DNA of 64,000 nt from NCBI GenBank assembly GCA_905234245.1, contig CAJOGN010000032.1, positions 1 to 64,000 on the forward strand, read 5' to 3'. The stretch is from an uncultured Lachnospiraceae bacterium. GTDB lineage: Bacteria; Bacillota; Clostridia; Lachnospirales; Lachnospiraceae. The notes under the pieces are model-generated. The model made no database searches and was not told where the DNA came from. It saw only the letters and a list, made by a program, of their open reading frames with translations. The position numbers and the translations under genes are program-made. Shown one piece after another: positions 3,353 through 62,592 of the stretch (positions within the stretch are counted from its first letter, which is position 1; each line of letters begins with the position of its first letter).

Positions 3353-3423
3353 TAGTCACAATTATTAAAATAAAATATTATACAATATTATATAATTTGA
3401 CGATAAAATATTTTCACGAAAAT

Positions 3424-3458
3424 AGCCCCACGCTCATACAGAAAATCGCGTTGGGGCT
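3424..3458. repeat. Conserved-core hairpin, family 1, copy 1
   Basis: agcccca-[CGCTCATACAGAAAATCGCGT]-tggggct followed by TTTTT on the plus strand. Confidence 0.8.
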
Positions 3459-3488
3459 TTTTCGTAAAAATATTTTGCCTAGTTTATA

Positions 3489-10233: not shown

Positions 10234-10300
10234 AAGCCCTACTAATAAGGTCAACTTAGCGATTTTCTCCATGAGCGAGTTGACCTTATTAGTAGGGCTT
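10234..10300 (-). repeat. Conserved-core hairpin, family 1, copy 2; likely terminator of the NlpC gene
   Basis: Minus strand aagccctactaataaggtcaact-[CGCTCATGGAGAAAATCGCTA]-agttgaccttattagtagggctt followed by T-run. Confidence 0.85.
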
Positions 10301-14267: not shown

Positions 14268-14282
14268 GTTGTTCCGTCCCTT

Positions 14283-14323
14283 GTCGTAAGGAGGGACCCA
14301 CTTGTGGGAGGATTCCTTACGAC
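14283..14323. repeat. Palindromic repeat, family 2, copy 1
   Basis: GTCGTAAGGAGGGACCCACTTGTGGGAGGATTCCTTACGAC; same core at 49765 and 52270-52360. Confidence 0.85.
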
Positions 14324-22271: not shown

Positions 22272-22339
22272 AGATGATTTCACAAAAGTCTGTCCGCTCA
22301 TACAGAAAATCGCTTGCCAGACTTTTGCTGAAATCATCT
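22272..22339. repeat. Conserved-core hairpin, family 1, copy 3
   Basis: agatgattt..caaaagtctg-[tc CGCTCATACAGAAAATCGCTT gc]-cagacttttg..aaatcatct; core 22295-22315. Confidence 0.85.
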
Positions 22340-49123: not shown

Positions 49124-49711
49124 CTAGTCTAATTTCATGCCCTTACCAGCACAGTAGTCCTTGAAGCTTTGGTTGACCTTATCCTTATCTGATAGGATGA
49201 CGTCATCTGGTGTAAGGTCGTTGTCAAATGGCCAGTCTACTCCTATGTCAGGGTCGTTCCACATTAGGCCACCCTCATCATTAGGATGATAGAAGTCAGT
49301 TACCTTGTAGCAGAACTCTGCATAGTCTGACATAACTAAGAAACCATGTGCGAATCCCTTCGGTACGAAGAACTGCTTCTTATTCTCAGCGGATAGTACT
49401 ATTCCATAACATTTGCCAAATGTAGGTGAACCATTACGAAGGTCAACTGCCACATCATACACCTTACCATTAATAACTCTTACAAGCTTATCCTGTGGAT
49501 GATTGAGCTGGAAGTGGAGGCCACGAAGCACGCCCTTCTTAGATGCAGACTGATTGTCCTGAACGAACTTATGATCAATTCCTTCTGCTGCAAAATCATT
49601 ATAGTTGTAAGTCTCCATAAAGTAACCACGTTCATCACCAAAAGCTGTTGGCGTTATTACGTGAAGTCCTTCTATACCATTAACATTATGTTCTACTGTT
49701 ATCTTTCCCAT
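49124..49711 (-). CDS. rfbC: dTDP-4-dehydrorhamnose 3,5-epimerase
   Basis: FVQDNQSASKKGVLRGLHFQ; FFVPKGFAHGFLVMSD. Confidence 0.96.
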   Translation of the reverse strand: MGKITVEHNVNGIEGLHVITPTAFGDERGYFMETYNYNDFAAEGIDHKFVQDNQSASKKGVLRGLHFQLNHPQDKLVRVINGKVYDVAVDLRNGSPTFGKCYGIVLSAENKKQFFVPKGFAHGFLVMSDYAEFCYKVTDFYHPNDEGGLMWNDPDIGVDWPFDNDLTPDDVILSDKDKVNQSFKDYCAGKGMKLD

Positions 49712-49738
49712 GATTTCCTCCTAATTGTTATATATTAC

Positions 49739-49847
49739 ATATCAGTAGCAAACACCCACCTGGCCGTAAGGAATCCTCCCACAAGTGGGTCCCTCCTTAC
49801 GACATACCTCATAAAGAAAATCGCTCTGTGGGTTTTGCTACTGATAT
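49739..49847. repeat. Family-1 hairpin (copy 6) carrying a family-2 palindrome in its loop
   Basis: Outer stem atatcagtagcaaa..cccac / gtggg..tttgctactgatat; core remnant CTCATAAAGAAAATCGCT at 49808-49825; inner palindrome 49765-49801. Confidence 0.85.
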
Positions 49848-49852
49848 GGCTT

Positions 49853-50731
49853 CTATAATCCTTCGGCAACATCTATTAGATATTTACCATAGTCAGTTTT
49901 CATAAGTGGCTCTGCAAGCTTACGAAGCTGATTAGCATCAATAAAGCCTCTCTTATATGCAATCTCTTCAATACAAGATACATATAATCCCTGTCTCTTC
50001 TGGAAAGTCTCAACGAAGTTGGCTGCCTGAAGAAGCATCTCGTGATTACCAGTATCAAGCCAAGCAAATCCACGACCAAGCGTCTCAACATGAAGATTGC
50101 CGCGGCTGAGATATTCGTTATTAACAGAAGTAATCTCAAGCTCGCCCCTTGCTGATGGCTTAACATTCTTAGCAATGTCAACTACATCATTGTCATAGAA
50201 ATATAGTCCTGGCACAGCGTAGTTAGACTTAGGCTTCTCTGGCTTCTCCTCAATGGAAATGGCAATTCCTGATTCGTCGAATTCTACAACACCATACTCT
50301 CTTGGGTTGCGAACATAATATCCGAAAATTGTTGCCCCAGCTTCTGACTCAGTCCTGTCCGCTGTCTCACGAAGCACCTTAGAGAAGCTCTGGCCATAGA
50401 ATATGTTGTCGCCTAGCACTAACGCCACAGCGTCATTGCCTATGAATTCATCTCCTATGATAAATGCTTCAGCAAGTCCGTTAGGTGCCTCCTGAATTCT
50501 ATACTCAATATTCATTCCTAACTGACTTCCATCGCCTAATAATTCCTGGAATACTGGAAGATCTCTCGGTGTGGAGATTATTAGAACCTCTCTTATTCCT
50601 GACAACATCAATGTAGATAATGGATAGTAAATCATTGGCTTGTCATAGATTGGCATTATCTGCTTTGATATTGCTTTAGTTAGGGGATATAATCTCGTTC
50701 CAGACCCTCCCGCCAGAATTATTCCTTTCAT
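49853..50731 (-). CDS. rfbA: Glucose-1-phosphate thymidylyltransferase
   Basis: [46 protein letters not shown]; start chosen at this Met (longer ORF to 50839). Confidence 0.97.
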
Positions 50732-50762
50732 TATATCTGTCCTCCTTGTTATTATATTCTTA

Positions 50763-50995
50763 TGCACGAAGTATACAATAGTATGACTTCGCTGATATTT
50801 CTTCGCTAAGAGTATACTTATGATTAAGGTATTCTCCACTTAGAAACTCTGACCAAGACCGCTCCTCAATCCGACATCGTGTCGGCTCGTCGCTAATCGC
50901 GTCATCCCTGACGCGAGTTCTTGTCACTGAATTAATCATATGTATCCTCTAAGCTCGAACTAAGGCTTCAGTCATACATTGTATACTTCTTAGCA
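50763..50995. repeat. Spaced imperfect palindrome with internal hairpins
   Basis: Left GAAGTATACAATaGTATGACT..AGAGtATACtTATGATTAA matches the reverse complement of the right side GAAGTATACAATGTATGACT..AGAGgATACaTATGATTAA; internal CCGACatcgtGTCGG and CGCGTCatccctGACGCG. Confidence 0.7.
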
Positions 50996-52215: not shown

Positions 52216-52250
52216 AAGCTCCCCCTTTCTGTAAATGCGCGCGCATTAAC

Positions 52251-52366
52251 TCCTTATGATATATTACCGATCACAAGGAATCCTCCCACACGTGGGTCCC
52301 TCCTTATGATATATTACCGATCACAAGGAATCCTCCCACAAGCGGGTCCCTCCTTATGATATATTA
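52251..52366. repeat. 50-bp tandem repeat (about 2.3 units), each unit carrying a family-2 palindrome
   Basis: Units tccttatgatatattaccgatcacaaggaatcctcccacacgtgggtccc at 52251, 52301, partial 52351. Confidence 0.9.
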
Positions 52367-52640: not shown

Positions 52641-52691
52641 GCAAAAAGTTCCACCGCTCATACAGAAAATCGCTTGTGGAACTTTTCTTGC
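52641..52691. repeat. Conserved-core hairpin, family 1, copy 4
   Basis: gcaaaaagttccac-[CGCTCATACAGAAAATCGCTT]-gtggaacttttcttgc; T-run on the minus strand. Confidence 0.85.
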
Positions 52692-52700
52692 AAATATTAT

Positions 52701-53350: not shown

Positions 53351-53420
53351 GAATTCTGTGACACAAGGTCTGCCCGCTCATACAGAAAATCGCTAAGCAG
53401 ACCTTGTGCTCCCAGAATTC
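53351..53420. repeat. Conserved-core hairpin, family 1, copy 5
   Basis: gaattctg..cacaaggtctgc-[c CGCTCATACAGAAAATCGCTA a]-gcagaccttgtg..cagaattc. Confidence 0.85.
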
Positions 53421-62447: not shown

Positions 62448-62527
62448 GGTTGACAAAAGGACCTTCCCCGTGTCAACCTTAAGTGTTGCCAAAAGGTTGA
62501 CAAAAGGACTGTCCCCCTGTCAACCTT
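62448..62527. repeat. Two related GGTTGACA...TGTCAACC inverted repeats in tandem
   Basis: GGTTGACAAAAGGACCTTCCCCGTGTCAACC (62448) and GGTTGACAAAAGGACTGTCCCCCTGTCAACC (62495). Confidence 0.8.
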
Positions 62528-62592
62528 AAAATTAAGTTTAATTATAATATGTGAAAAAAATGTGTTAAAAATAAGAAAAAATTTTTAAAAAA

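What the first reader, a model, noticed from the sequence alone, without database searches (positions are those of the whole stretch)
49739..49847. One repeat family inserted into the loop of the other
Between rfbC and rfbA the outer stem (atatcagtagcaaa.../...tttgctactgatat) and the right part of the family-1 core (CTCATAAAGAAAATCGCT) are present, but the loop is interrupted by a complete family-2 palindrome (CGTAAGGAATCCTCCCACAAGTGGGTCCCTCCTTACG). This suggests family 2 is, or was, mobile and may target hairpin loops or single-stranded DNA.
Basis: partly seen in the sequence, partly recalled or inferred. Interest (0 to 1): 0.75.

Follow-up and report, generated by a model that had tools for sequence, protein, structure and literature searches.

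The report
Hairpin repeat nested in another hairpin
Between two sugar-synthesis genes of a rumen bacterium lies a short folded DNA repeat with a second, separately mobile folded repeat inside its loop, and relatives show that such repeats really do insert into each other's hairpin loops.

Summary
Window 49739-49847 is a long hairpin with a family-1 loop core (F1), interrupted on the 5' side by a complete 47-nt family-2 module (M2, 49760-49806).

The insertion did not happen here: the F1+M2 compound, with the same junctions, recurs at two other places in this genome, at two in the sister genome G005, and in diverged form in G002. At rfbC-rfbA, G005 (about 95% identical) and two other species lack the whole compound, so it most likely arrived pre-formed.

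The mobility idea is supported elsewhere:
- In G002, M2 sits in the loop of a third hairpin family (H3) flanked by a 4-nt direct repeat GGAC. The orthologous G001 hairpin is uninterrupted.
- A different module, M4, sits in the F1 loop at two G000 sites where G005 has an uninterrupted hairpin; one of these is otherwise unchanged.
- M2 also lies inside TwoAYGGAY RNA elements (RF01731).

Limits: about 60 of 82 M2 copies are not inside a recognised host hairpin. Insertions into F1 show no target duplication. No mobilising enzyme is identified.

Best reading: a genus-restricted mosaic of small mobile hairpins that nest in one another's loops. It is a new variant of the known BOX/RUP/BIME-type composite repeats.

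The parts
49739..49759 (+). 5' arm of the outer F1 stem (ATATCAGTAGCAAACACCCAC); this stem is not shared with any other fetched locus
49760..49806 (+). inserted family-2 module M2 (47 nt, CTGG-CCGTAAGG..hairpin..CCTTACGACATA) in the 5' side of the F1 loop
   Evidence: element limits taken from the filled/empty pair G002/G001 and from 82 aligned copies
49808..49823 (+). conserved 16-nt F1 loop core CTCATAAAGAAAATCG
49828..49847 (+). 3' arm of the outer F1 stem (GTGGGTTTTGCTACTGATAT)
49727..49853 (.). stretch present here but absent from the rfbC-rfbA junction of sister genome G005 (empty site CCTCCTAAT|TATAATCC)
49853..50725 (-). rfbA-like gene (glucose-1-phosphate thymidylyltransferase type; translation from [11 protein letters not shown]), whose stop faces the compound
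   Evidence: ORF listed as 49853-50839, start chosen by inspection
14282..14321 (-). second M2 copy, 100% identical over 40 nt to the one in the compound; also present in G005
52250..52359 (+). two tandem M2 copies (50-nt period), lacking in G005
3420..3469 (+). simple F1 hairpin
22284..22333 (+). simple F1 hairpin, also present in G005
52644..52693 (+). simple F1 hairpin, also present in G005
53354..53417 (+). simple F1 hairpin, absent from G005 (insertion/deletion polymorphism)
10247..10287 (-). simple F1 hairpin; G005 keeps only the 3' arm

Best explanation
The feature is a compound of two small non-autonomous mobile hairpins. The host, F1, is a 20-30 bp stem whose sequence differs from copy to copy, topped by a conserved 16-nt loop (CTCATANAGAAAATCG), with about 60-75 copies in this genome. 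The guest, M2, is a 47-nt palindrome that moves by itself and can insert into hairpin loops of unrelated families. The F1+M2 combination was formed once or a few times, then multiplied, and was placed between rfbC and rfbA in this lineage as a ready-made unit. Shown: copy number, recurrence of the compound, presence/absence between sister genomes, and one exact filled/empty site for M2 in a hairpin loop. Inferred: movement at the DNA level, with the extruded hairpin or lagging-strand loop offering a single-stranded target, by a transposase acting in trans (an HUH/Y1 enzyme is the first candidate).
For: F1: 76 core hits, stems of about 20-25 bp differing between copies. The pair closing the 16-nt loop covaries (GC 57, CG 5, AT 3 of 70; 65 Watson-Crick against at most 57 in 2000 shuffles). 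F1 is abundant only in this genus, and one stem subfamily (CCTAAGCACCAAA) sits at seven or more loci. The compound recurs with the same junctions in G000 (three), G005 (two) and, diverged, G002 (one). It is absent as a whole at rfbC-rfbA in G005, G006 and G003. M2 mobility into a loop: G001 GACACGGGGAC|GGTTC against G002 GACACGGGGAC-[M2]-GGAC-GGTTC; the same arrangement at two other loci, L083 and L084. M2 in TwoAYGGAY loops. Parallel case: the M4 module lies in the F1 loop in G000 while the orthologous G005 hairpin is uninterrupted; L048 is otherwise unchanged, L008:502 also has stem changes. M2 in the compound is 42/42 identical to M2 in other species. F1 orientation is not biased towards gene sense (33 antisense, 21 sense), which favours DNA over RNA.
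Against: F1+M2 compounds show no target duplication; relative to simple F1 the two loop bases AC are replaced. TSD-like repeats are not general among M2 copies: 5 of 74 at 4 nt (shuffle mean 0.5, maximum 4), three of them the H3 cases. Boundaries of whole-F1 presence/absence are ragged, and at least one empty site is a deletion remnant (L074/L306). M2 at a constant position could be an optional stem of one structured element. No transposase tracks copy number: RAYT-type Y1 genes occur in G001, G002 and G007, which are poor in F1; IS200-type genes occur in most genomes.
Confidence: 0.62

Rival explanations
1. Optional-domain model: F1 is one structured element (RNA or ssDNA) and M2 and M4 are peripheral stem-loops that it may or may not carry, as riboswitches and ribozymes do. 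No insertion into loops took place in recent time.
For: M2 always enters at the same 5' position and M4 at the same 3' position of the F1 loop. M4 in a G006 F1 has a different stem that still pairs (L106). In TwoAYGGAY, M2 can fill the model's variable internal loop without lengthening it (L192). No target duplication in F1.
Against: M2 and M4 occur alone and in other hosts; M2 has an exact filled/empty site in an unrelated hairpin; M4 is present/absent between sister genomes in the same F1 copy; orientation is not tied to transcription.
Confidence: 0.2
2. Replication-error model: palindromes grow, nest and shrink by template switching and slippage at hairpins, with no dedicated transposase; similar modules spread by gene conversion between copies.
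For: Concentric self-nesting of an F1 hairpin with one level more in G000 than in G005, gained on both arms (L017). Partial arm deletions (window 10259, L069, L074). Compensatory multi-base stem differences between orthologues (L008:502).
Against: Identical 40-42-nt M2 modules at unrelated loci and in different species, a 4-nt direct repeat at the H3 insertion, and the same F1 stem at seven or more unrelated loci need copying to new places.
Confidence: 0.15
3. Chance overlap of two unrelated repeats in one intergenic region.
For: None beyond the single locus as first seen.
Against: The compound recurs with the same spacing at five other loci in three genomes. My rough estimate is 0.01-0.1 M2 copies expected inside F1 loops of G000 against 3 seen.
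Confidence: 0.01

Closest known systems
BOX / RUP / SPRITE repeats of Streptococcus pneumoniae
   Different: BOX and RUP have terminal inverted repeats and target duplications. F1 is conserved in its loop and variable in its stem, and the guests here sit at fixed positions in the loop.
REP/BIME/REPIN elements with RAYT (Y1 HUH) transposases
   Same: Short intergenic palindromes; H3 hairpins flank RAYT genes in this genus; Y1 enzymes act on single-stranded hairpins (PMC6006769).
   Different: F1 and M2 are not found next to a RAYT gene. F1 copy number does not follow RAYT presence. I saw no GTAG-type guide but did not test it formally.
TwoAYGGAY RNA motif (RF01731)
   Same: Hosts M2 in its variable loop in this genus; high copy number, 5-40 per genome.
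   Different: F1 and M2 alone do not match it. It was described as a candidate RNA in human gut, gamma-proteobacteria and Clostridiales (PMC2864571), not as a mobile repeat host.
ERIC, Correia/NEMIS and other bacterial MITEs
   Same: About 100-bp non-autonomous intergenic hairpins; Correia elements exist with and without a 50-bp internal sequence (PMC2229807).
   Different: MITEs are conserved at their ends; F1 is conserved only at its loop.

Membership tests
MITE (miniature inverted-repeat transposable element) | Conserved terminal inverted repeats | tested here: not met
   F1 stems and ends differ from copy to copy; only the loop is conserved. M2 does have imperfect ends NTGGTC...GACATA.
MITE (miniature inverted-repeat transposable element) | Target-site duplication | tested here: inconclusive
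   GGAC direct repeat for M2 in H3; none for F1+M2, none general across 74 M2 copies.
MITE (miniature inverted-repeat transposable element) | Dispersed in many copies with presence/absence polymorphism | tested here: met
   76 F1 hits in G000 and 82 M2 copies with usable flanks in the loci fetched across the genus; presence/absence between G000 and G005.
REP/RAYT system | Palindromes next to a Y1 transposase gene | tested here: not met
   H3 hairpins flank the RAYT genes; F1, M2, M3 and M4 do not.
REP/RAYT system | 5' GTAG-type guide tetranucleotide at the hairpin foot | not tested
   Not seen by eye in F1 or M2; no formal scan done.
BOX-type composite repeat | Modular composite of distinct hairpin subunits in variable combinations | tested here: met
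   F1, M2, M3, M4, H3 and TwoAYGGAY occur alone and in several combinations.
BOX-type composite repeat | Sequence homology to boxA/boxB/boxC | not tested
   No BOX model on hand. DNA search of the compound in phages and plasmids gave nothing.
TwoAYGGAY RNA (RF01731) | Covariance-model score above gathering | tested here: not met
   The compound itself gives no hit; TwoAYGGAY is a separate element at 50795-50964.

The most novel reading that the evidence does not exclude
A family of mobile DNA hairpins that uses the loops of other mobile hairpins as its main landing sites, so that palindromes grow by nesting, through a single-strand-specific enzyme that recognises a conserved loop on an arbitrary stem.
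Probability: 0.25. Interest if true: 0.8.

Novelty: new variant of a known kind. Interest (0 to 1): 0.52.

Why it matters
Most bacterial repeats are recognised by conserved ends or stems. Here the loop is conserved and the stem is free to change, and unrelated hairpins sit inside each other's loops, with exact empty sites available in sister genomes. That makes it possible to test directly whether some elements target extruded or single-stranded hairpin loops, and it warns that parts of an RNA family such as TwoAYGGAY can be repeat insertions rather than regulatory structure.

Tried and rejected
- Rfam match for F1 or M2: none; hits were tRNA and TwoAYGGAY only.
- RAYT (Y1) transposase as the obvious mobiliser of F1: copy number does not follow it. 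RAYT genes are flanked by H3, not F1 or M2.
- Stem created from the target by inverted duplication: G005 empty sites do not contain one arm, except at window 10259 where a deletion explains it equally well.
- Compensatory evolution keeping old stems perfect: in 18 shared orthologues 11 of 14 classified stem changes break a pair, so shared copies mostly decay.
- Statistical test for a helix spanning each M2 junction: 3 of 82 beyond the 1% null. It reaches only 35 nt, so it misses F1 and TwoAYGGAY hosts; reported as weak.
- Genome-wide target-duplication test for M2: positive only for the H3 cases.
- Phage and plasmid searches: nothing; the viral-contig scan failed. Other taxa in the genome-contig scan look like chance 17-base matches.

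Full report
WHAT IS THERE. The window is contig C32 of a 2.66-Mb assembly. Between rfbC (49124-49711, minus) and rfbA (minus, stop at 49853) lies a 109-nt palindrome: 5' arm 49739-49759, M2 49760-49806, F1 core 49808-49823, 3' arm 49828-49847. Its predicted DNA fold is one long stem with M2 as an inner hairpin.

THE HOST, F1. The core CTCATANAGAAAATCG occurs 76 times in this genome at up to two mismatches. Around it the stem is 20-25 bp or longer and differs in sequence from copy to copy, while the loop stays the same. The pair closing the 16-nt loop covaries (57 GC, 5 CG, 3 AT of 70; 65 Watson-Crick against at most 57 in 2000 shuffles), so the hairpin is real. F1 is common in G000, G005 and G006, rare in the other members of the genus, and absent beyond chance elsewhere in the family and order. 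One stem type (CCTAAGCACCAAA...) is found at seven or more loci, which shows that whole hairpins are copied. Copies show no orientation bias towards genes (33 antisense, 21 sense).

THE GUEST, M2. An HMM search found 82 M2 copies with flanks in the loci fetched from the eight genomes. Hosts I could recognise: F1 (6), H3 hairpins (3), TwoAYGGAY elements (13, of which 10 are confirmed by the covariance model). The others are alone, in tandem, or next to other small hairpins (M3 AACATTTTGC..GCAAAATGT, M5 GCACCGAGC..GCTCGGAATGC).

THE DECISIVE COMPARISONS. (1) At rfbC-rfbA, G005 reads CCTCCTAAT|TATAATCC: the whole compound and a few flanking bases are missing. G006 and G003 also have a bare junction; G004 and G002 carry other palindromes there. 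The compound therefore most likely arrived in this lineage complete. (2) In G002, M2 lies in the loop of an H3 hairpin: GACACGGGGAC-[47-nt M2]-GGAC-GGTTCTTTTGTC. The orthologous G001 locus reads GACACGGGGACGGTTCTTTTGTC. This is a clean filled/empty pair with a 4-nt direct repeat. (3) Another module, M4 (TATGCGATACC..GGTATCGCCGGTAA, 32 nt), lies in the 3' side of the F1 loop at two G000 loci whose G005 orthologues are uninterrupted F1. At L048 the rest of the hairpin is unchanged; at L008:502 the stem also differs by compensatory changes. M4 is also in F1 loops in G002 and, with a different but still pairing stem, in G006. (4) An F1 hairpin is nested in its own loop at L017, one level deeper in G000 than in G005.

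WHAT COUNTS AGAINST. F1+M2 has no target duplication, and most M2 copies are not in loops. Whole-F1 presence/absence has ragged edges and some empty sites are deletions (L074/L306). At L008:502 loss of M4 in G005 is possible. Shared F1 copies decay rather than coevolve. No enzyme is identified: Y1 transposases are present in the genus, but RAYT genes are flanked by H3, not by F1 or M2.

KNOWN RELATIVES. Pneumococcal BOX, RUP and SPRITE repeats are reported to insert into one another (PMC3049150), so nesting of small repeats is known. Not found in what I could read: repeats conserved in the loop with freely varying stems, or fixed insertion points inside such loops. My literature search covered open-access papers only.

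VERDICT. The claim that family 2 is mobile and enters hairpin loops is supported by an independent locus; the claim that it did so here is not, because the compound recurs and came as a unit. Mechanism at the enzyme level is inference.

Noticed in passing
window 50795-50964 (-): TwoAYGGAY (RF01731) is present 5-40 times per genome in this genus. In the listing, 20 pairs lie within 300 bp of each other and all 20 have the same arrangement, minus copy then plus copy, 77-275 bp apart. This resembles REPIN doublets and suggests a mobile or paired element rather than a single cis-regulator.
   Followed up: partly
L017 (G000:C18:45623) and L144 (G005:C27): Concentric self-nesting of an F1 hairpin inside its own loop, one level deeper in G000 than in G005.
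   Followed up: partly
L050:1033 (G000:C34) vs L159 (G005:C63): In G005 an F1 hairpin lies inside what looks like an intrinsic terminator loop; in G000 terminator and F1 are separate.
   Followed up: no
window 62448-62529: Two H3 hairpins (GGTTGACAAAAGGAC..GTCAACC), absent in G005; the same type flanks RAYT genes in G002 (L166), with a GCGACA variant in G007 (L165).
   Followed up: partly
L016 (G000:C18:42170): F1+M2 compound without an intact outer stem, flanked by a 22-nt near-direct repeat (TTACTACAGTRTCTATATGAGA), possibly a large duplication.
   Followed up: no
L170 and L192: TwoAYGGAY copies without M2 in the same pair already contain ACATATGAC or ATATGACA at the M2 junction, so the ACATA end of M2 may derive from TwoAYGGAY; this would make TwoAYGGAY the source of M2.
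   Followed up: no
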